Origin: a virus
Length of the DNA: 30,390 bases
Reading direction: 5' to 3' (one strand)
IMG/VR virus record: IMGVR_UViG_3300040815_000286
Coordinates: 1-30,390 of that record
The stretch's first letter is position 1, and each line of letters opens with the position of its first letter. A model generated the notes under the pieces. That model saw only the letters and a program-made list of their open reading frames with translations, searched no databases and was not told where the DNA came from. Shown here one piece after another: positions 10,479 through 19,951 of this stretch. The position numbers were made by a program, and so were the translations under genes.

Positions 10479-11873
10479 ATGAACCAAGACGAAATCACTG
10501 AAATCCTGATTGAGCTGAGCAAGGATCCTGTCCTGTTTGTTCGATCCATTCTGAACGCTGAACCTGAAGACTGGCAAAAAGAAGCCCTATACGCTGTCCG
10601 CGACAATGACCGCGTCGCCATCAGGTCCGGTCACGGCATCGGAAAGACCGCGTTCTTGTCGTGGCTGATCCTGTGGTGGCTCAGTACACGCACCCCTGCA
10701 AGGATTGCCTGTACCGCAAACACTGCCAGCCAGTTGAGCGACATCTTGTGGGCTGAGGTTGCGAAGTGGCAACGTCGGATGCCAAAACGCTTCCAAGAGG
10801 TAATACAGGTGAAATCGGATAAGGTCGAAGTCGTCGGAGCCGATAGCTTCGCAGTTGCAAGAACTGCACGCCGCGAAACGCCAGAGGCACTGCAAGGCTT
10901 CCACAGTCCCAATATGCTCTTTTTGATTGATGAGGCATCTGGTGTTGATGACCTGATCTTTGAGGTTGGTGAAGGTGCCATGTCTACAGAGGGTGCCAAG
11001 ACTGTGATGACCGGCAACCCGACAAGAACGTCTGGCTATTTTTATGAGGCGTTCAACAAGATGAGAGAGAGATGGTTCACAATGAAGGTTGCGTCTGGCG
11101 ACAGCACGCAAGTGTCCGACAACTTTATTGAAGACATGAAAACGAAATACGGCGAAGAGAGCAACATCTATCGCGTGCGTGTTCTGGGTGAGTGGCCCGA
11201 AGCCGACGACGACGTTGTCATCCCACTGCACTTGATTGAGAGCGCCACCAAGCGCGACCAAGAGGCGGCGGAAACGACACCTGTTGTTTGGGGGCTTGAC
11301 GTTGCACGCTTTGGATCCGATAGAACCGCCTTGTGCAAGAGAAAAGGAAATGTGGTTGTGGAGCCGCTCAAGACGTGGCGTAATAAGGACTTAATGGAAC
11401 TGTGTGGGATTATCCTGAATGAATATGAAACTACCAGATGGTCGGAACGACCGCTTGAAATTTTGGTTGATAGTATTGGCATTGGTGCTGGGGTGGTGGA
11501 TCGTCTTCAGGAGCTTGATCTACCTGCTAGGGGTATAAACGTAGCTGAAAGCTCAGCTATGAAACAGAAGTATTTTCGCCTGCGCGATGAGTTGTGGTTC
11601 AGCGCAAAAGAATGGTTTGAGGGCCGCGACTGCACGATACCTGATCAAGAGGAGTTGATTGCAGACCTGTCGAAGCCGCGCTTCAAGTTTTCTTCCAATG
11701 GCAAGCTCAAGGTTGAGAGCAAGGACGAAATGAAAAAGCGTGGCATGAATAGCCCTGACTTGGCTGATGCGTTTTGTTTGACTTTTGCTGGCAACGCCTC
11801 CATTGCTAGAAGCGGAAGTAAGTTTAAGTGGAGCAACCAGATCAATTATCCGAAAGCAAGGTGGATTGTATGA
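10479..11873 (+). CDS. terL: Terminase large subunit
   Basis: The 464-residue protein is the packaging motor. The ATPase domain has Walker A GHGIGKT (51-57) and Walker B LFLIDE (147-152), with the coupling segment TGNPTRTSG (178-186). The nuclease domain has GLDVARFGSD (Asp274), LVDSIGIG (Asp331) and SPDLADAF (Asp427/Asp430), the acidic residues expected of the RNase H-like fold. The start is set at 10479, where GAGGAGA lies upstream; the frame is open 129 bases further, but that Ser/Pro-rich leader coincides with GC-rich hairpins and looks non-coding. The stop overlaps the next gene (ATGA). Confidence 0.93.
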   Translation: MNQDEITEILIELSKDPVLFVRSILNAEPEDWQKEALYAVRDNDRVAIRSGHGIGKTAFLSWLILWWLSTRTPARIACTANTASQLSDILWAEVAKWQRRMPKRFQEVIQVKSDKVEVVGADSFAVARTARRETPEALQGFHSPNMLFLIDEASGVDDLIFEVGEGAMSTEGAKTVMTGNPTRTSGYFYEAFNKMRERWFTMKVASGDSTQVSDNFIEDMKTKYGEESNIYRVRVLGEWPEADDDVVIPLHLIESATKRDQEAAETTPVVWGLDVARFGSDRTALCKRKGNVVVEPLKTWRNKDLMELCGIILNEYETTRWSERPLEILVDSIGIGAGVVDRLQELDLPARGINVAESSAMKQKYFRLRDELWFSAKEWFEGRDCTIPDQEELIADLSKPRFKFSSNGKLKVESKDEMKKRGMNSPDLADAFCLTFAGNASIARSGSKFKWSNQINYPKARWIV

Positions 11874-12103
11874 GTGAGACAGAGTTTGTCACGTTAGGCG
11901 AAGAAAATTTAGACGATCTTAAGCAGATCATCATGCTGATGATGGAACTTGAAAATTCTGGTTCTAATTTCGAAGATCTGATGTATACTTGCCTGATGGC
12001 GGCTGGCTACTGCGCGTCAGAGGCTGGCATTGACGCAGATGAGTTTATGGAAATCGTGCGCAGTATCCGCATGACTGACGACGGCGTCCACGGAGATTGC
12101 TGA
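11870..12103 (+). CDS. Hypothetical acidic helical protein (77 aa)
   Basis: The product (MSETEFVTLGEENLDDLKQI...) is strongly acidic and helical, with LMMELENSGSNFEDLM and a C-terminal helix. It is translationally coupled to terL by an ATGA overlap and to the next basic mini-protein by a TGATG overlap. No family is recognised. An in-frame start 42 bases upstream lies fully inside terL and is less likely. Confidence 0.65.
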   Translation: MSETEFVTLGEENLDDLKQIIMLMMELENSGSNFEDLMYTCLMAAGYCASEAGIDADEFMEIVRSIRMTDDGVHGDC

Positions 12104-12225
12104 TGGCAAAAAAACAGACAGTCGGAATGTACACCCCCCTGCCGAAAACAAAACGCAGGGGGCGTAAGCGTGGTCTGAATGTCCGTAAGGTGCACGGCCC
12201 AAAGAGTAATATGAGGATCCGTTAA
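12103..12225 (+). CDS. Basic mini-protein (40 aa)
   Basis: The short frame encodes MAKKQTVGMYTPLPKTKRRG followed by RKRGLNVRKVHGP and a basic end. Almost half the residues are Lys, Arg or His, suggesting nucleic-acid binding. The ATG overlaps the previous stop (TGATG) and the TAA overlaps the next ATG (TAATG), which argues strongly that it is translated in the late operon. Function unknown; a DNA-condensing or assembly peptide is possible. Confidence 0.6.
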   Translation: MAKKQTVGMYTPLPKTKRRGRKRGLNVRKVHGPKSNMRIR

Positions 12226-14984
12226 TGGCTAGTAGATATTTAGGTGAGTATCTTGCAGACCCATCACTGATAGTTTCTGATCCTGCAATCAAGGTGGGTA
12301 CGGCTGTCAAAGAAGACCCAATGTCATTTGCGCGTGGGCTTTCTTACGCACCATTCGATCTTGTTGGTGCGCCAGTTGATCTTATGAACCTGATTGCGTC
12401 GCCAATTAACCAAGCTATAACCGGCAGGCCCATTGAGAAGCCGGTGGGCGGCAGTGATTGGCTCATTGATCTTTACTCAAAATTTGCGCCGTCAATGGAA
12501 AGGACTGGCTCTGTGGCGGAGAACACAGGCAGGTTTATTTCTGGTATTATTGATCCTATTGTTGTAGTGAGTGTGGGCAATAAAATTCTAAAGGGGATGG
12601 AAGCCCTAGATGTTTTTAGTGACTTAAAGAGATGGAGTGAAACAGGTGAAACACCAAAATGGACAGTCGAAAGAGACGACGAAGCAGGCATACTCAAAGT
12701 TAGAGGCGGCTCTGCAAGAGCGGATGACCAAGGAGCTGGGAGAGGATCCACTGCCTCCGTATCAGGAGAGCGTCAGGTCGTTGAGGGGGCAAGTGGCACA
12801 AATCTCACGGATGCAGAAGTCAAAGAAATTCTAGCCGACGACAAACTTAATGTCGCGTACCAGCTTGCAGACAAATACACGCAAGATAACTTTGGCGTTC
12901 CGTACAACCGAATAGACCCAGCGTCAGTTGAAAGCAACATCGTAAAACAGGCCGCCATAGGCCGCGTCTATGAGCTTGCTGTTATGGGTGACGACGACTA
13001 CAAGGCTCTTGTTTTTGATGCTTACAAGCGTGAGATGCCTGACGTTGTTGCGCAGTCTGGTGCAGAAAATTACGATGATCTTGTGCAGGCATCTTACGAA
13101 GCGATGGCGCGTGAGACTAAAGATCAGTTTAACCAAATGATGCCGTCAGACATGACATTTACATTTCACCAAGGTGAGCTTGAATATGGTAAAGCATCAG
13201 ATGCGTTCAGGGATGTAACAGAGAATAGAAACCTGAATGTCTTTCGCGGCGGCGACGAACATGAGTATCTAAAGAATATTGATCCAGATACCGGCCTAAC
13301 TGAAAATGAAATGTTTAGGGCTGTGCATGATATGTTTGGTCATGCCGCCGGCGGCAACAGCTTCCAGCCAAAAGGCGAAGAGATTGCGTTTTTATCTCAT
13401 TCTCAAATGTACTCACCACTTGCGCGTCTTGCGATGGCATCGGAGACAAGAGGCCAAAATAGCTGGCTGAATTACGGCACAGCCAACGCACCAATGTTCA
13501 AAGACATTCGCGTTATCGACAACGAAATAAAAGATATACGCTCTCAAGCAAGCCGCATGGGGCAGAAGCCAGATCAAGCAAAAATTGATGAACTGCAAGC
13601 TCAAAAGAAGGGCCTGTATGATGACTTGCAATACGCTGAACAAAGATCGGTTTTATTGCCGCCAGAATATGTCAGCCCAAATTTTAATGATCCTTATTTT
13701 ATTCCGCCATATCTGCGTGAATTAAATATGTCTCAGCGTGAGGCTCAACCATTCTACGGCTTACACATAGGGCCACAAGGCTTGTCTGTTGTTGATCCTG
13801 CATATCAGGGCACAAGTCGTGCACGCGGCGAAGAGGCTCAAAGGCTTACACGCGAAGATGCACCGGCACCACCGCGTCAAATGTTTTATGGGCCGGATGA
13901 GATGGGGGCTATTCAGCCTGAGAGTTTCATAGGCCAACCATACAGGGCGACAGGCGAAGGGCTTAATCTCTATAATTTTGACGAAGACCCTCTTGGGCTT
14001 TTGACGCTTGCTGGTGCGCGTTATCCAGACACAAACATCAACCGAAATGATGCGGCCCTGAATACTTTTGAGAGCTTACTGCCTGTCTATGGTTATCAGG
14101 GCTATGTCGCTAGGCAAAAAGGCGGCGGCCCTGTGACAAGCGTTTTTGATCCTGTGCGCGTAACACCATCTACGCTTGATCGTCGTTATCCAACACCAAA
14201 GAACCAACAAGAACGGATCGCAAGGGATGTTTTAAGGTTGCTGGAAAATGATCGTGGATCTGAAGTAACGGATGCGATGTTGCGATACGCAGACAAAACC
14301 TATCTTGATAAAAACTACGATCTGCCGCTTGACGTTGAAAGCCGCATGAAAAGAGCAGGAGAGATGGGCTTTGATCCTGAAGATGTTAGATACAGTGGGA
14401 CAGACAAAACTATCGACGAAATAACGCAGGCTATATGGACTTCAAGCAACCCTAAAATTGCTGAGATGTATGGCGAAAATATATACCCACTACTTCTAAA
14501 AGAAAACTTGGGTGGCACTGTTTTTGCTCATGGTGAAAACTGGGATCGCCTAACAAAAAGAACGCCAGTAGAAAGAGCCGGCGCAGGCGGTCAGGTTTTC
14601 AATATGAACCTAGAAGACCTTTATGATATATTTGGTGAGAGGTGGCCCAGCACCATAGCGAAGGGTGATGAAAAATATATCACGACTGACGATGTCGCCG
14701 CACTAGCATCTGAGGCTGGGATTCCAAGTTTGGAGTTTTCTGATGTTGTTGACTTTGGGCCTATTTGGAGAAACTTGACTGAAAACGAAAAAGCTCAACG
14801 TCGTCTCCCATCAACCACAAGGGTTGATATGTATTCTTCAAATGTAAGATCACCAACTGCACGTTTTGATCCGCGACTAGGACACCTTGCGAACATAGGC
14901 GCAAGCATTGCGGCACCCATTGTTACGGCGCAGATGATCGAAGAGCTTTTGAAAGAAGATTCGAATAACGGAGTGATTTACTGA
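12225..14984 (+). CDS. Large multidomain protein with HD-x2-GH motif and ART-like C-terminus
   Basis: This 919-residue protein sits between terL and the portal. Residues 1-130 are moderately hydrophobic, with APFDLVGAPVDLMNLIASP (42-60) and IIDPIVVVSVGNK (108-120). A low-complexity linker (160-190) follows. Residues about 195-480 form a conserved-looking domain with FRAVHDMFGHAA (364-375), GEE (384-386), SHSQM (391-395) and SETRGQNSWLNYG (406-418), seen in large phage proteins. Residues about 710-885 recall the ADP-ribosyltransferase domain of phage 'polyvalent' proteins: RYSGTDK (722-728), WTSSNPKIAEMYG (738-750), IPSLEFSDVVDFG (833-845) and SSNVRSPTARFDP (871-883). A Ser replaces the usual His of the HGT motif. 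It may be packaged and injected. Activity is unproven. Confidence 0.7.
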   Translation: MASRYLGEYLADPSLIVSDPAIKVGTAVKEDPMSFARGLSYAPFDLVGAPVDLMNLIASPINQAITGRPIEKPVGGSDWLIDLYSKFAPSMERTGSVAENTGRFISGIIDPIVVVSVGNKILKGMEALDVFSDLKRWSETGETPKWTVERDDEAGILKVRGGSARADDQGAGRGSTASVSGERQVVEGASGTNLTDAEVKEILADDKLNVAYQLADKYTQDNFGVPYNRIDPASVESNIVKQAAIGRVYELAVMGDDDYKALVFDAYKREMPDVVAQSGAENYDDLVQASYEAMARETKDQFNQMMPSDMTFTFHQGELEYGKASDAFRDVTENRNLNVFRGGDEHEYLKNIDPDTGLTENEMFRAVHDMFGHAAGGNSFQPKGEEIAFLSHSQMYSPLARLAMASETRGQNSWLNYGTANAPMFKDIRVIDNEIKDIRSQASRMGQKPDQAKIDELQAQKKGLYDDLQYAEQRSVLLPPEYVSPNFNDPYFIPPYLRELNMSQREAQPFYGLHIGPQGLSVVDPAYQGTSRARGEEAQRLTREDAPAPPRQMFYGPDEMGAIQPESFIGQPYRATGEGLNLYNFDEDPLGLLTLAGARYPDTNINRNDAALNTFESLLPVYGYQGYVARQKGGGPVTSVFDPVRVTPSTLDRRYPTPKNQQERIARDVLRLLENDRGSEVTDAMLRYADKTYLDKNYDLPLDVESRMKRAGEMGFDPEDVRYSGTDKTIDEITQAIWTSSNPKIAEMYGENIYPLLLKENLGGTVFAHGENWDRLTKRTPVERAGAGGQVFNMNLEDLYDIFGERWPSTIAKGDEKYITTDDVAALASEAGIPSLEFSDVVDFGPIWRNLTENEKAQRRLPSTTRVDMYSSNVRSPTARFDPRLGHLANIGASIAAPIVTAQMIEELLKEDSNNGVIY

Positions 14985-15259
14985 TGGCTGTAGTTTATCG
15001 CGGCGAACGCTTTGCCGGCTACAACAAGCCGAAGCGCACCCCCAACCATCCGAAGAAGAGCCACGCCGTTTTGGCAAAAGAGGGCGACAAGATCCGCCTG
15101 ATCCGTTTTGGTCAGCAAGGTGTATCTGGATCACCAAAGAAAAAAGGCGAAAGCAAGTCTTATGCTAATCGCCGCAAGTCGTTCAAGGCGCGTCATGCGC
15201 AGAACATCGCTAAAGGAAAAATGTCAGCCGCTTACTGGGCAGACAAAGTTAAATGGTAA
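14984..15259 (+). CDS. Conserved basic phage protein (91 aa)
   Basis: The lysine/arginine-rich product (MAVVYRGERFAGYNKPKRTP...) contains SHAVLAKEGDKIRLIRFGQQGV (26-47) in parts and ends in RRKSFKARHAQNIAKGKMSA followed by AYWADKVKW. This pattern recurs in many marine phage genomes near the portal, but its role is unknown to me; nucleic-acid binding is likely from charge. The ATG overlaps the previous TGA by one base. It opens a cluster of very small basic proteins. Confidence 0.75.
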   Translation: MAVVYRGERFAGYNKPKRTPNHPKKSHAVLAKEGDKIRLIRFGQQGVSGSPKKKGESKSYANRRKSFKARHAQNIAKGKMSAAYWADKVKW

Positions 15260-15269
15260 AGGAAAGACT

Positions 15270-15389
15270 ATGGCATACGCAAAAAAGAAATCATCACCTA
15301 ACAAGAAAAAAAGTTTTACCCCATGCGCAACTTGCAAAAGCCCAATGGCCTGCATGAAGATGGGCCGGTGCATGAAGGGTGGAAAGTAG
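15270..15389 (+). CDS. Cys-rich mini-protein (39 aa)
   Basis: The frame from 15270 encodes MAYAKKKSSPNKKKSFTPCA followed by TCKSPMACMKMGRCMKGGK. Four cysteines in C-x2-C-x5-C-x5-C spacing follow a lysine-rich head and may bind zinc. Similar 'CKSPxxCxxxGxC' mini-proteins occur in other phage genomes. GGAAAG precedes the ATG. Its TAG stop overlaps the GTG of the next gene. Confidence 0.6.
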   Translation: MAYAKKKSSPNKKKSFTPCATCKSPMACMKMGRCMKGGK

Positions 15390-15538
15390 TGCCTCTTACC
15401 GCCAAAGGTAAAAAGACGCTTGCTCAGCTTCAAGGCGAATACGGAAAGAAGCGTGGGGAAGGCGTGTTTTATGCGATGATAAACTCTGGTAAACTAAAGG
15501 GTGCGGAGCAGAAGAAACGCAAAAAGAGGAAAGCGTAA
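15389..15538 (+). CDS. Conserved mini-protein, GTG start (49 aa)
   Basis: Starting from the GTG at 15389 the product reads (M)PLTAKGKKTLAQLQGEYGKK, then RGEGVFYAMINSGKLKG and a basic tail. The PLtxxGkk...YGxkkG..vFYAxxn.Gk pattern is familiar from hypothetical proteins of many phages. An upstream in-frame ATG at 15323 would overlap the Cys-rich gene by 67 bases and gives an unrelated leader, so I prefer the TAGTG junction; GAAGGGTGGAAAG lies upstream. Function unknown. Confidence 0.6.
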   Translation: MPLTAKGKKTLAQLQGEYGKKRGEGVFYAMINSGKLKGAEQKKRKKRKA

Positions 15539-15694
15539 ATGTATGTCACCATCTATCGCAGAGACAGAAAGAGAGAGAAGGCTTTGGCGCAAGAAGCACT
15601 TGCTAAAGAGGCAGAGGCGGCAAAGGCTGAATCAGACGAAGAAACCAAGAAGGTAAAAAAGGGGCGACCCAAAAGACGAAAGGCTCAACCATGA
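15539..15694 (+). CDS. Basic coiled mini-protein with AT-hook-like tail (51 aa)
   Basis: The product begins MYVTIYRRDRKREKALAQEA, continues as an Ala/Glu/Lys helix, and ends in KKGRPKRRKAQP, where GRP flanked by basic residues resembles an AT-hook. Its ATG follows the previous stop directly, and its TGA overlaps the next ATG (ATGA). Function unknown; DNA binding is suggested only by composition. Confidence 0.55.
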   Translation: MYVTIYRRDRKREKALAQEALAKEAEAAKAESDEETKKVKKGRPKRRKAQP

Positions 15695-15873
15695 ACTGTA
15701 ACAACTGTGGCTATCCCAACCCAAACGGATATTTAGGTGCCTGTAAGTCCTGCCGCCAACCCCTAGTGGTTGAGCAAGAGACTATACAAGCCGTGGAAAC
15801 TGTGACAAAAAAGGCTAAGAAGGTTTCTTCCAAGAAAATTATTGTGGAGCCGATTGATGGCGAAATTAACTGA
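15691..15873 (+). CDS. Zinc-ribbon mini-protein (60 aa)
   Basis: The N-terminus carries CNNCGYPNPNGYLGACKSC, a C-x2-C ... C-x2-C zinc ribbon (residues 3-21). The remainder is a Glu/Lys-rich tail. It overlaps the portal start by 14 bases, so the two may be coupled in translation. The zinc-ribbon form is clear; the function is not. Confidence 0.7.
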   Translation: MNCNNCGYPNPNGYLGACKSCRQPLVVEQETIQAVETVTKKAKKVSSKKIIVEPIDGEIN

Positions 15874-17890
15874 CATTGAATTTCAATCTATCCTGCGCAC
15901 TGAGATTGAGCAGGCACTTGGTTACTATGACACTGAGTTTAGTCAGGATCGTATTGACGCGATGGACTACTACCTTGGTGAGCCGTTTGGCAATGAACAG
16001 CCAGACCGCTCCCAAGTAATTGCGACCGAAGTCTCTGACACCATTGAGACGATCATGCCTAACCTGATGCGTATCTTCACGCAGTCGGAAGACTATGTGC
16101 GCTTTATGCCTAATGGCCCTGAAGATGTGCAGGTAGCTGAACAGGCAAGTGACTACGTCAACTGGGTTATCAATACTGACAACTCAGGTTTTGCAATCAT
16201 GCACAACTGGTTTAAGGACGCGCTTCTATTCAAGGTCGGCGTTGTCAAATATAACTGGGATGAAATCGTCGATATTGAGTATGAGGAGTATGAAGGGCTA
16301 AACGAAAATGAGATGACAGCCCTGATCATCGACGACGACGTTGAGGTTGCTGAGCAAGAAGAGATTGTTATGGGTGAGCCTCAGCTAATGCCTGATGGTC
16401 AGGTCATGCCGCCTCCGATTGCCTACAATGTGAAACTGCGCCGCACCAAAACAAGCGGTCGCATCAATGTTGAGAATGTGCCGCCAGAAGAGTTTTTGAT
16501 CAGCAAGCGTGCGAAGTCTCTCAAAGATGCCGACTTTGTTTCGCACCGCACGACGATGACTGTTAGCGATCTGGTTAGTATGGGTTACGACAAAGATGAG
16601 GTGATGCAATATGCAGGTTACACAGACCTTGACACGTCGGACGAAAGAACAACTCGGTTCGAAGATCTTGAAAGCGGATCTGAGGATGACAGCAAAGACC
16701 CAGCCATGCGCGATGTCATGGTTACTGAAAGCTACATCAAAGCTGATTATGACGGCGATGGTGTTGCTGAGTTGCGCCGCGTTCTTGCTATTGGGACTGG
16801 CTATCATATCATAGAAAATGAAGAATGTGACTATGTCCCATTTGCCATTCTTTCGCCAATTCTAATGCCGCATCGTGCAATCGGTCGCTCGGTCGCAGAA
16901 CTTGTGATGGATGTTCAGTTGATCAAGTCAACACTGATGCGTCAGTTGTTGGACAACATCTACAACGCAAACAATGCGCGTGTGATTGCAGTTGAAGGTC
17001 AGGTCAATCTTGATGACCTTCTGACTAATCGTCCTGCTGGCATTATCCGCACACGCGCTCCAAACATGGTTCAGCCATTGCAGGTTCCAGAGGTATCAGG
17101 CGCGGTGTTCCCAGCTCTTGAATATATGGATCGGATGAAGGAACAGCGCACTGGCGTAAGCCGTCAGTCGATGGGCTTAGATGCTAACGCACTGCAATCG
17201 ACAACCGCAACTGCCGTTGCCGCCATGCAAGCCGCATCGCAAGGCAAGATCGAAATGATTGCGCGTGTATTCGCAGAAACAGGTGTTAAGGATTTGTTCC
17301 GTGGCATCTTGCATCTGGTTACGAAGTACCAGAACAAGCCGAAGATTGTACGCCTGCGTAATCAGTTTGTTCCGATGGATCCGCGCCAGTGGGCAACGTC
17401 TTATGATGTGCAGATCAATGTCGGCCTTGGCACCGGTCAGCGTGAACAACAGCTTGCAACATTGTTCCAGATCGCTACGCGACAAGAGCAGATCATTGCG
17501 GCACTTGGGCCAAACAATATGATTGTAAGCCCAGTGCAATATCGCAACACGCTTGCAAAAATCACTGAGCTGTCTGGATTCAAAGATGTTAATGAGTTTT
17601 GGATGGATCCGCGCAACGCGCCTCCGCCACAGCCACAACAGCCTCAAGTTGATCCTAAAGTGCAGGCTGAAATGCAGAAGATGCAGGCGGAAATGCAAAT
17701 GGCTCAACAGAAAGCGGCTCAAGATCTTCAACTTCAAAAAGAGAAGATGCAGATGGAGTTTGCCTTCAAGCGTGAGCAAATGGCGGCTGAGTTGCAACTG
17801 CGTCAACAGGAGCTTGCATTTGAACGTGAGCTACGCGCACAGCAAATGGCATCTGGTGTGAATGTATCGACTAACCTACCAAGGGTCTAG
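15860..17890 (+). CDS. Portal protein, P22-type
   Basis: The 676-residue protein forms the dodecameric gateway for DNA at one capsid vertex. The N-terminal region (MAKLTDIEFQSILRTEIEQA...) and VIATEVSDTIETIMPNLMRI (52-71) match P22-like portals, as do PFAILSPILMPHRAIGRSVAEL (about 329-350) and the wing and crown regions. The last roughly 85 residues are a Gln/Met/Lys/Glu-rich helix with a Pro-rich start, like the barrel of P22 gp1 that enters the capsid. The ATG at 15860 overlaps the zinc-ribbon gene by 14 bases; an in-frame start 18 bases upstream is less plausible. Confidence 0.9.
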   Translation, partial: AKLTDIEFQSILRTEIEQALGYYDTEFSQDRIDAMDYYLGEPFGNEQPDRSQVIATEVSDTIETIMPNLMRIFTQSEDYVRFMPNGPEDVQVAEQASDYVNWVINTDNSGFAIMHNWFKDALLFKVGVVKYNWDEIVDIEYEEYEGLNENEMTALIIDDDVEVAEQEEIVMGEPQLMPDGQVMPPPIAYNVKLRRTKTSGRINVENVPPEEFLISKRAKSLKDADFVSHRTTMTVSDLVSMGYDKDEVMQYAGYTDLDTSDERTTRFEDLESGSEDDSKDPAMRDVMVTESYIKADYDGDGVAELRRVLAIGTGYHIIENEECDYVPFAILSPILMPHRAIGRSVAELVMDVQLIKSTLMRQLLDNIYNANNARVIAVEGQVNLDDLLTNRPAGIIRTRAPNMVQPLQVPEVSGAVFPALEYMDRMKEQRTGVSRQSMGLDANALQSTTATAVAAMQAASQGKIEMIARVFAETGVKDLFRGILHLVTKYQNKPKIVRLRNQFVPMDPRQWATSYDVQINVGLGTGQREQQLATLFQIATRQEQIIAALGPNNMIVSPVQYRNTLAKITELSGFKDVNEFWMDPRNAPPPQPQQPQVDPKVQAEMQKMQAEMQMAQQKAAQDLQLQKEKMQMEFAFKREQMAAELQLRQQELAFERELRAQQMASGVNVSTNLPRV

Positions 17891-17893
17891 TGG

Positions 17894-19951
17894 ATGGCTG
17901 TGCCGCTTAACATTGCAGATAGCATAAAAGATCTGTTGGGTCAGTCCAACTTGTTGCCGCAACAGCAGTTGGGCCAAGGTGGTATTGATGTGCAGTCGCT
18001 TCTGAATGTTAAGCCGCCATCCTTGTTCAATGCGCCAGTTGGTCAGATGATGATGCCAGATGCACAATCTGGCGGAAGCTCATTTGGATATGCCCCTGCG
18101 TTCCAGCCATCAACACCATACTCAGCAACTAACCTGCCAGAGTTTATGCAAGGTTATGAGCAGACACCTAGCGGTCGCTTTGTGATGTCTCAGGGGTTGC
18201 TTGGCGTGCCTCCGACAATGGACAATGTTCAATCTCTCTTCTCTCAGGGATATGCGTCAGAGTACGATCCGCTAGAGAAACAATTTCAAGAGAGTTTTGC
18301 ATTGGATCCTAGCTGGTTCGGTAATGTGTATCGGTCTGGATACATGATACCAAGTATGCCAAGGGGCATGACAGAAGACACAAGTAGTCCGCTTGGTGGT
18401 ATTGCTGGGGTGCTTGCAGGTGGTGCCGCGCTCAAGGCATTAACGCCATACACTGACGATATAGCAAGTGCCATTGGTTTCAGTGGTGATGGCGTGAGTA
18501 GCGGAACTGGTTTGGGAAGTTGGTTCAAGGATATAGACCTATCAAGCTCTGGCACTGGAATTGGCACTTGGTTCAAGGAAAACTTCAACAAGCCAGAGTT
18601 TATCAATAACGCTCAAGAAAAAGCAAAAGAGTACCTTGCAGAGATTAAAAAGAGCGACCTGTACAAGGCTGGTCAGACTGCATTTGATATTGGTGGTGAT
18701 GCTTTTAATGCCTATGGTCGCATTGAGAACTTTGTAAACAATCCCAACCCTATGGATGCTTTCAAAGCCATCGACGCTATGAATAAGCTAACAACATACC
18801 TGCCAGAAGACTTGCAAAAGTCGGTGCAGGGAATTGCGGCAGACATTGGGCCTGCTGTTGGAGTTGCGCTTGATGTTTCTTCAATCGCGTCAATAGCAAA
18901 TGCTTTTGACAATCCAACACCTGTAAACATTGCAAATGCTTATGGCAGTCTTGATTATCTTGCTCAGCAGGGATATTTAGGATCCAATCTTGGATCTGGA
19001 CTGCCATACGCTCAAAACATTGCAGGTATAGGCAACATCGTCGGTGGACTACAGGCACTTGAGGGTGGCATCGACAGCGCAGGTGAAGCATTGCAGGTGG
19101 CTACCGGCGCGGCAACGGCCGCTAGTATGTTTGGCGGCGGAACTGCAATCGGATCTGCTGGCACTGCGGCATTGCCTGTGCTTGGGCCGGTCGCCGCTCT
19201 TTATGGTGCATATCAAATTCTAAACAAGCCAGAAGCAAACCTTGGTCACGCTATTGTTGGCAGGGACGACTTTGGCGGATATTCAATTTCAAGCGAAGGC
19301 TACAAAGGTGAGGGCGAAAGTATAGCTAAACCTGAAGCTAATGCCGCTATGCTTGTGCTTGGTGAGCTTGAGCGTAACTATGGTTACAAGTTTAACCCTG
19401 ATGCTTGGGAGCAAGTTAATAAGCGTGTTGACTTCGACAATGGTCGCTGGGTGCGCGGAGCGCATGACGTGATCATTGATGCGCTTCAAAAGGGGGCGCT
19501 GGTTCCGACTGAGGGTACTCCACGCAGTCTTGACTTTGTTAATATGCTGAAAGATGCACGCCTCTATATGTCAGAAGCCCCATACACAACCAACAAGTCA
19601 ATGTCATCGTTTGCGCGTGGTCAAGAACGTGCGCGTCAAATGCAAGAGAGCGAAGCCTATGGCCCAGAAGGACCACATCCGCTTGAAGTTGAGCGCATGA
19701 AAATGGGTCTTGATCCGTTCCAGTGGAGCGCAGATATTGCTGAGCAGTTTGGGCGACTAGATCTTTCTGGCCTTGACTTTAGCGCGTTAAACCTTCCGCA
19801 GGTCGCATCAGATTACCAACCAGCACCAGAGCCTGAATACTATACATTAGATGGACAGCAATATACGCCAGCACAGCTTCAAAACATATTTGGCGGTGGC
19901 ATATCAATCCCCAGCCCATTTGCAGGATTTACAGCACCACGATACGGCTAG
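17894..19951 (+). CDS. Large Gly/Ala-rich virion protein, possible ejection protein
   Basis: The 685-residue protein lies between portal and scaffold. The N-terminal 160 residues are Gln/Pro/Gly-rich and probably extended. Weakly hydrophobic glycine-rich stretches appear at 165-185 (LGGIAGVLAGGAALKAL) and 405-442 (TAASMFGGGTAIGSAGTAAL, then PVLGPVAALYGAYQIL). A short internal repeat occurs at 204-230 (GTGLGSWFKD and GTGIGTWFKE). The C-terminal 240 residues are mixed. No family is recognised. Gly-rich amphipathic segments are frequent in phage ejection or internal proteins that cross the host membrane. The gene begins three bases after the portal stop. Confidence 0.65.
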   Translation: MAVPLNIADSIKDLLGQSNLLPQQQLGQGGIDVQSLLNVKPPSLFNAPVGQMMMPDAQSGGSSFGYAPAFQPSTPYSATNLPEFMQGYEQTPSGRFVMSQGLLGVPPTMDNVQSLFSQGYASEYDPLEKQFQESFALDPSWFGNVYRSGYMIPSMPRGMTEDTSSPLGGIAGVLAGGAALKALTPYTDDIASAIGFSGDGVSSGTGLGSWFKDIDLSSSGTGIGTWFKENFNKPEFINNAQEKAKEYLAEIKKSDLYKAGQTAFDIGGDAFNAYGRIENFVNNPNPMDAFKAIDAMNKLTTYLPEDLQKSVQGIAADIGPAVGVALDVSSIASIANAFDNPTPVNIANAYGSLDYLAQQGYLGSNLGSGLPYAQNIAGIGNIVGGLQALEGGIDSAGEALQVATGAATAASMFGGGTAIGSAGTAALPVLGPVAALYGAYQILNKPEANLGHAIVGRDDFGGYSISSEGYKGEGESIAKPEANAAMLVLGELERNYGYKFNPDAWEQVNKRVDFDNGRWVRGAHDVIIDALQKGALVPTEGTPRSLDFVNMLKDARLYMSEAPYTTNKSMSSFARGQERARQMQESEAYGPEGPHPLEVERMKMGLDPFQWSADIAEQFGRLDLSGLDFSALNLPQVASDYQPAPEPEYYTLDGQQYTPAQLQNIFGGGISIPSPFAGFTAPRYG

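What the first reader, a model, noticed from the sequence alone, without database searches (positions are those of the whole stretch)
12225..14984. ADP-ribosyltransferase-like domain in a terL-linked giant protein
Residues about 710-885 carry, in order, RYSGTDK, WTSSNPKIAEMYG, IPSLEFSDVVDFG and SSNVRSPTARFDP. This order matches my knowledge of the ART domain of phage polyvalent proteins (H-Y-E type), except that the first motif has Ser where His is usual. A packaged ART could modify host RNA polymerase or translation on entry, like T4 Alt. The His-to-Ser change raises the question of whether it is active, altered in substrate, or only a scaffold.
Basis: partly seen in the sequence, partly recalled or inferred. 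Interest (0 to 1): 0.8.

Follow-up and report, generated by a model that had tools for sequence, protein, structure and literature searches.

The report
Diverged twin-ART phage cargo protein
A phage gene between its DNA-packaging motor and portal genes encodes a protein with two enzyme domains of the ADP-ribosyltransferase kind, the second with a changed active site, and a nearly identical phage carries a different gene there, as expected for an optional weapon used against the host.

Summary
In detail: ORF 12225-14984 (919 aa) starts 351 nt after terL and carries all four motifs in order. Residues ~710-885 are an ART-PolyVal-type domain (ART-B). The window itself has no Pfam match, but 33 of 59 aligned relatives match PF18760, and an AlphaFold model (pLDDT 85) aligns almost only to ARTs. 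The motif-I His is Ser724, Tyr749 is kept, and the inferred acid position is Thr865. Literature gives this family as H-Y-D, not H-Y-E. Ser occurs in 4 of 135 family domains and arose at least twice.

New here: (1) residues ~506-655 are a second ART fold that keeps His514, Glu537 and Tyr555; (2) a contig 96% identical around terL and portal carries a different gene between them, exchanged from codon ~3 to the C-terminal FDPRL motif, with a standalone ART whose core is 51% identical; a 668-aa relative lacks ART-B. A large ORF fills this slot in 10 of 67 related loci.

Best reading: a swappable polyvalent effector, ART-A probably active, ART-B diverged and perhaps non-catalytic. Packaging, NAD binding and targets are untested.

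The parts
12225..14984 (+). 919-aa polyvalent-type cargo protein (N-terminal region + phrog_3170 domain + ART-A + ART-B)
   Evidence: domains
12225..12935 (+). N-terminal region, residues 1-237; 57% identical to the 668-aa relative over 216 residues; not modelled
12936..13574 (+). phrog_3170 domain, residues ~238-450 (profile match 255-423), pattern HDxFGH ... GE ... H ... ETxGQN; function unknown
   Evidence: AF2 model
13740..14189 (+). ART-A: first ART-fold domain, residues 506-655; keeps His514, Glu537, Arg540, Arg551, Tyr555, Glu566, Asp588; departs from its family at Gly516, Ser531 and Met553 among others
   Evidence: VIA-align to AcrIF11, NatT, ParT, RES toxins, MbcT; conservation
14187..14351 (+). 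helical lead-in to ART-B, residues 655-709
   Evidence: AF2 secondary structure; aligned in relatives
14352..14879 (+). ART-B: ART-PolyVal-type domain of the finding, residues 710-885
14394..14396 (+). Ser724 codon, at the position of the motif-I catalytic His
14469..14471 (+). Tyr749 codon, the conserved motif-II Tyr
14817..14819 (+). Thr865 codon, at the inferred strand-5 acid position (followed by Arg866-Val867-Asp868)
   Evidence: placed by spacing to the N[IV]RS motif
14835..14981 (+). C-terminal tail SSNVRSPTARFDPRLGHL..., holding the five invariant columns of the 59-row alignment and the right-hand junction of the gene exchange
10350..11873 (+). terminase large subunit (context)
15842..17890 (+). 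SU10-type portal protein (context)

Best explanation
The gene is an optional, exchangeable cargo in the terL-portal slot of a phage with SU10-type portal and capsid proteins. It encodes a polyvalent-type effector, probably made late, placed in the head and ejected with the DNA (inferred). It has two tandem ART-fold domains. ART-A keeps His, Tyr and Glu conserved in its family and is the likelier active NAD-using enzyme (ADP-ribosyltransferase or NADase; inferred). ART-B, the domain of the finding, has the ART-PolyVal fold but a diverged site (Ser-Tyr-Thr in place of His-Tyr-acid). It is maintained rather than decaying, but most likely does not carry out ordinary ADP-ribose transfer; it more likely binds a target, nucleotide or partner. 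Shown here: homology, predicted folds, residue changes, gene exchange, genomic slot. Inferred: packaging, ejection, activity of ART-A, loss of activity of ART-B.
For: Homology: 33 of 59 members of the family alignment, each scanned alone, match PF18760 at E<=0.01, best 6.6e-15. Fold: pLDDT 85.1, pTM 0.80; 40 of the 42 listed VIA-align rows are ARTs by title or recalled identity, best 6kyf Z 7.3, diphtheria toxin 5.1-6.0, MbcT 5.6, cholix 5.1, PARP4 4.5. Ser724 is shared with L009/L171 (same contig as L004), whose core is 51% identical over 202 codons with dS not computable, i.e. saturated. In 135 family domains motif I is His in 113, Arg 13, Ser 4, Thr 2, gap 3; Ser needs at least two origins on the tree. 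None of 19 non-His domains has Glu/Asp at the spaced acid position, against at least 31 of 113 His domains. ART-A: listed residues conserved in 22-24 of 24 rows and present in the window; ART matches at Z 5.8-6.7. Exchange: L004 is 96% identical in nucleotides on both sides (TerL 99.4%, portal 99.3% in protein) but differs from codon ~3 of the gene to ~14836. Slot: 58 of 111 distinct ART-B ORFs have terL detected within 2.5 kb upstream; 10 of 67 related slots hold an ORF of 200 aa or more, 5 of them with ART-B, one an LPD23 protein. Replacing the catalytic His lowers diphtheria toxin activity at least 70-fold, and PARP13, which lacks His and Glu, is inactive (PMC7955679, passages).
Against: The window domain has no Pfam match at E<=10 (HMMER's filters drop most weak ones). 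No Foldseek match reaches E 0.001 (best 5.8e-3) and most of the 50 listed are unrelated; Z under 8 is in the range that models without a clear match can reach. The acid is missing at that spacing in most His-bearing relatives too, and Asp868 could serve instead. PARP9 is Q-Y-T yet listed with mono-ART activity (PMC7955679 table). ART-A departs from its family at several conserved positions, among them Gly516 (Ser in 21 of 24) and Met553 (Tyr in 22 of 24). No virion data; host unknown; selection inferred from conservation only.
Confidence: 0.55

Rival explanations
1. ART-B is an active ART with altered chemistry: Ser724 holds NAD in place of His and Asp868 (or Arg866) replaces the usual acid, possibly giving NAD hydrolysis or a new acceptor.
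For: Tyr749 and the fold are kept. Ser/Thr arose repeatedly in one clade and Arg repeatedly elsewhere. An acid three residues on recurs in related rows (RVD, RID, RAD, RVE). In the table of PMC7955679, PARP9 is Q-Y-T and several PARPs are H-Y-I, all marked as mono-ARTs. AcrIF11 uses H-F-H-D (PMC12421852, passages).
Against: Replacing the His lowers diphtheria toxin activity at least 70-fold (PMC7955679, passage). The +3 residue should face away from the +0 residue on a regular strand (inference).
Confidence: 0.28
2. The protein is a late intracellular factor, not a virion protein, acting on the host or on competing phages after expression.
For: No packaging was demonstrated; a place between terL and portal suggests late co-expression, not packaging.
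Against: Published context analysis links ARTs beside terminase and portal genes to head packaging (PMC9503650, passages). A cyanophage pre-ejectosome chain (9k3a_B) aligns to the ART-B model at Z 5.6, a weak lead.
Confidence: 0.2
3. ART-B is a decaying passenger left by recombination.
For: Two of three catalytic positions differ; the 668-aa relative does without ART-B.
Against: Open frame; confident predicted fold; the stretch PEDVRYSGTD is identical in a relative with saturated dS; the substitution recurs independently.
Confidence: 0.07

Closest known systems
ART-PolyVal (Pfam PF18760), ART domain of phage and plasmid polyvalent proteins
   Same: Motif order, Tyr, predicted fold, the N[IV]RS..A.FDP tail of its relatives, multi-domain protein, terminase-portal context
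   Different: Ser724 for His, Thr865 at the inferred acid position; no direct Pfam match; preceded by a second ART fold
AcrIF11 (PDB 6kyf), ART anti-CRISPR of phages and plasmids
   Same: Best structural match of ART-B and joint best of ART-A
   Different: Small standalone protein with H-F-H-D residues; 14% and 8% identity in the structural alignments
Diphtheria toxin / PARP H-Y-E ARTs
   Same: Fold; family profile aligns YHGT and A..Y
   Different: E-value only 0.064; the window lacks the His and the Glu
T4 Alt
   Same: Works-like hypothesis: ART delivered with the DNA
   Different: R-S-E clade (PMC5512222); delivery here untested
PARP13 and PARP9 (Q-Y-T)
   Same: ART domains lacking both His and Glu
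   Different: Eukaryotic; PARP13 is inactive but PARP9 is listed as a mono-ART, so the precedent cuts both ways

Membership tests
ART-PolyVal (PF18760) | Profile score at Pfam gathering cut-off (31.2 bits) | tested here: not met
   No match for the window at E<=10; 33 of 59 family members match at E<=0.01
ART-PolyVal (PF18760) | ART fold | tested here: met
   AF2 model pLDDT 85.1; 40 of 42 listed VIA rows are ARTs, Z up to 7.3; predicted, not experimental
ART-PolyVal (PF18760) | His in strand 1 | tested here: not met
   Ser724
ART-PolyVal (PF18760) | Tyr in motif II | tested here: met
   Tyr749; Tyr in 109 of 135 domains
ART-PolyVal (PF18760) | Asp (or Glu) in strand 5 | tested here: inconclusive
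   Thr865 at the spaced position, Asp868 three residues on; Glu/Asp at that spacing in 31 of 135 domains, 21 unreadable
ART-PolyVal (PF18760) | NAD-dependent ADP-ribosylation | not testable with these tools
   needs biochemistry
Phage polyvalent protein | Several effector-type domains in one protein of a terminase-portal phage | tested here: met
   phrog_3170 domain + ART-A + ART-B beside terL and portal; the phrog_3170 domain's role is unknown
Phage polyvalent protein | Packaged in the capsid and delivered | not testable with these tools
   no virion data
RES/ParT/AcrIF11-like ART (for ART-A) | ART fold | tested here: met
   7 of 50 VIA rows, Z 5.8-6.7, reach residues ~508-657; the other 43 cover a helical hairpin; all under Z 8
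RES/ParT/AcrIF11-like ART (for ART-A) | Catalytic residues equivalent to those of RES or ParT toxins | not tested
   His514, Glu537 and Tyr555 are conserved but no residue-level superposition was available
T4 Alt clade (R-S-E) | Arg in motif I | tested here: not met
   Ser724 in ART-B, His514 in ART-A

The most novel reading that the evidence does not exclude
A virion-delivered tandem of an active ART (ART-A) and a pseudo- or re-tooled ART (ART-B), in a phage clade that has repeatedly replaced the catalytic His by Ser or Thr. ART-B alleles would be swapped between near-identical phages as an interchangeable targeting or regulatory module: a pseudo-ART family in phage effectors, of a kind I did not see in the listings.
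Probability: 0.25. Interest if true: 0.68.

Novelty: new variant of a known kind. Interest (0 to 1): 0.5.

Why it matters
ARTs are described as by far the commonest predicted protein-modifying domains of polyvalent proteins (PMC5512222, section 9); I recall no measured member, but did not search print for that point. A natural series with His, Ser, Thr or Arg at the key position, plus a natural gene swap in a 96% identical backbone, would let one ask whether these domains work by catalysis or by binding, and what the host selects against.

Tried and rejected
Direct matches: none in Pfam for ART-B at E<=10, none in NCBIfam or PADLOC; phmmer of ART-B and of the middle region against PDB sequences gave only noise, as did the middle/ART-A profile.

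Aromatic-amino-acid-hydroxylase idea for the middle domain (shared HDxFGH motif): hhalign against four Biopterin_H proteins gave probability 1.4% and did not place the two HDxFGH motifs on each other. Its score (23.0) exceeds 20 column-shuffled controls (10.9-18.1), which is not enough; unsupported.

Profile comparison of ART-A with ART-B gave probability 26% (P 7e-4) over 38 columns at the last strands: suggestive, no close kinship shown.

The C-terminal FDPRL tail as a pure packaging signal: considered because the exchange ends in it. In relatives such as L043 and L050 the motif ends an ART that sits near the N-terminus of a long protein, so it goes with the ART domain.

Calling Thr865 simply 'loss of the acid': softened. 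The hope of a host: a scan of 84,980 species' genomes gave 4 weak relatives, the best in a Rhodobacterales assembly; host left open. Two paper searches on cyanophage A4 found none.

Full report
OBSERVATION. The ORF at 12225-14984 encodes 919 residues without an internal stop. The four quoted motifs lie at residues 722-728, 738-750, 833-845 and 871-883. The gene starts after a 351-nt gap from terL (10350-11873) and is followed by a 91-aa ORF (phrog_7595) and an SU10-type portal; a head-scaffold match and an SU10-type major capsid protein follow. The window is an IMG/VR virus record of 30,390 bases. Its portal's closest named phage records are at most 52% identical (Phage C72C1 51.9%; Pelagibacter phage HTVC106P 45.0%).

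WHAT THE DOMAIN IS. Neither the whole protein nor the region alone matches Pfam or NCBIfam. One bridge is Octadecabacter DB virus 2 gp6, found by tblastn at E 4e-4. It aligns through the domain to the NIRSQFARFDPRLGHL tail, carries a normal YHG motif, and matches ART-PolyVal at E 7.7e-4, below the curated cut-off. An alignment of three sequences reached 97 relatives in viral contigs, best 80 kept. I built a 59-row alignment (window plus 58 of the 80 loci; duplicates and fragments dropped by hand). Of these 59, each scanned alone, 33 match PF18760 at E<=0.01 (best 6.6e-15); the window does not. As a profile, its five best PDB sequences are diphtheria toxin entries (best E 0.064), aligned YHGT to YHGT and A..Y to A..Y.

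FOLD. AlphaFold2 on residues 655-919 with that alignment gives pLDDT 85.1 and pTM 0.80. Foldseek's best PDB match is 6kyf (E 5.8e-3, probability 0.97); none reaches E 0.001, and most of the 50 listed are unrelated, such as ubiquitin-conjugating enzymes. The VIA-align second look lists 42 rows; 40 are ARTs by title or recalled identity (all but 9k3a_B and 5umr): 6kyf Z 7.3, diphtheria toxin 5.1-6.0, MbcT 5.6, NatT 5.3, cholix 5.1, exotoxin A up to 4.9, PARP4 4.5, Arr-2 2.8. 6kyf is the ART anti-CRISPR AcrIF11 (PMC12421852, passages read). Z under 8 is not decisive by itself; the consistency of the list with the independent sequence evidence is what persuades.

ACTIVE SITE. Motif-I His is Ser724; Tyr749 is kept; the residue at the spacing of the family's Glu is Thr865, followed by Arg-Val-Asp868 (placement inferred from the spacing to N[IV]RS, equivalence to the PARP Glu recalled). 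I took 146 domain matches in all loci held, 139 unique, 135 of at least 130 aa; these include several domains of one protein and near-identical contigs. Motif I is His in 113, Arg in 13, Ser in 4 and Thr in 2, with 3 gaps; Tyr is kept in 109; Glu or Asp at the acid spacing occurs in 31, with 21 unreadable. All 31 are His domains; none of the 19 non-His domains has it (Fisher p 0.007, not corrected for kinship). On a quick 115-row tree with the motif-I column masked, well-supported branches force two origins for Ser and six changes for Arg; window and L171 pair with SH-aLRT 100. In that pair the cores are 51% identical over 202 codons with dS not computable, read as saturated, yet both keep PEDVRYSGTD. 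So the change is old, repeated and maintained, not a sequencing error. Replacing the His lowers diphtheria toxin activity at least 70-fold and PARP13, lacking His and Glu, is inactive; against that, the same table marks PARP9, Q-Y-T, as a mono-ART (PMC7955679, passages read). The polyvalent ART family is described as H-Y-D (PMC5512222, section 9 read).

A SECOND ART. Residues 236-660 were modelled with 25 sequences (pLDDT 83.5, pTM 0.83). Residues ~508-657 align to AcrIF11 (Z 6.7), NatT (6.2-6.5), ParT (6.2) and a RES toxin (5.8-5.9), and MbcT (6.7) spans a wider range; these are 7 of 50 rows, the other 43 cover a helical hairpin. His514 is conserved in 23 of 24 aligned rows, Glu537 in 22, Arg540 in 23, Arg551 in 23, Tyr555 in 22, Glu566 in 22 and Asp588 in 24, and the window has these seven. 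It departs from its family at other conserved positions, among them Gly516 (Ser in 21 of 24), Ser531 (Gly in 20) and Met553 (Tyr in 22). ART-A and ART-B are not shown to be close relatives (hhalign 26%).

CARGO EXCHANGE. Contig L004 is 96.7% identical to the window in nucleotides over 10485-12230 and 96.2% over 15258-19717; TerL is 99.4% and portal 99.3% identical in protein. Between them the 919-aa gene is replaced from codon ~3 by a 351-aa gene with a different N-terminus and an ART-B 58% identical over 251 residues. Similarity returns at about 14836, inside the NVRSPTARFDPRL coding stretch, and L004 has an extra 450-aa gene. L091 carries a 668-aa protein (62% identical over 625 residues) that ends where ART-B would begin. 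The window gene is therefore best seen as a 668-type protein joined to an ART-B module. Among 79 terL loci examined (78 of 80 found plus the window), 67 show a portal downstream. Of these 67, 10 have an ORF of 200 aa or more in between, 5 of the 10 contain ART-B, and the other 57 loci have no such ORF. Two of the 10 (L251, L292) carry the same 458-aa protein. One alternative cargo has LPD23 (E 2.9e-22) and a sub-threshold metallopeptidase match. More widely, terL was detected within 2.5 kb upstream of 58 of 111 distinct ART-B ORFs, a lower bound since many contigs end nearby.

READING. A polyvalent-type effector in an optional slot next to the packaging genes fits published inferences that such ARTs are packaged and injected (PMC9503650, passages). 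Delivery is not shown here; a cyanophage pre-ejectosome chain aligned to ART-B at Z 5.6 is only a lead. I favour ART-A as the catalyst and ART-B as a diverged, probably weak or non-catalytic partner; an altered-chemistry ART-B remains open.

Noticed in passing
window 12936-13574: phrog_3170 domain (HDxFGH ... GE ... H ... ETxGQN) of unknown function, abundant in viral contigs and found in mycobacteriophages such as Flabslab and Alice; looks like a metal site, no PDB relative found.
   Followed up: partly
L201, L189, L205, L186, L195, L200, L238 and others: Arg replaces the motif-I His in 13 of 135 ART-B-family domains, with at least six changes forced on the tree.
   Followed up: partly
L305:6277-7509: Alternative cargo in the same slot with LPD23 and a HELQH metallopeptidase-like motif.
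   Followed up: partly
L140:1531-4323: 930-aa protein with an ART-like stretch at each end of the phrog_3170 domain (N-terminal one found by profile; C-terminal one read by eye).
   Followed up: no
L284 353-aa ORF, L288 350-aa ORF, L004:1740-2795: Standalone ART-B proteins of this slot share, by eye, a hydrophobic N-terminus (TM..P..GD..GLLADA.MY....E.R), perhaps a virion-targeting or membrane segment.
   Followed up: no
PDB 9k3a_B residues 949-1606: Cyanophage A4 pre-ejectosome chain aligns to the ART-B model (Z 5.6, 120 residues): possible ART fold in a solved ejection apparatus.
   Followed up: no
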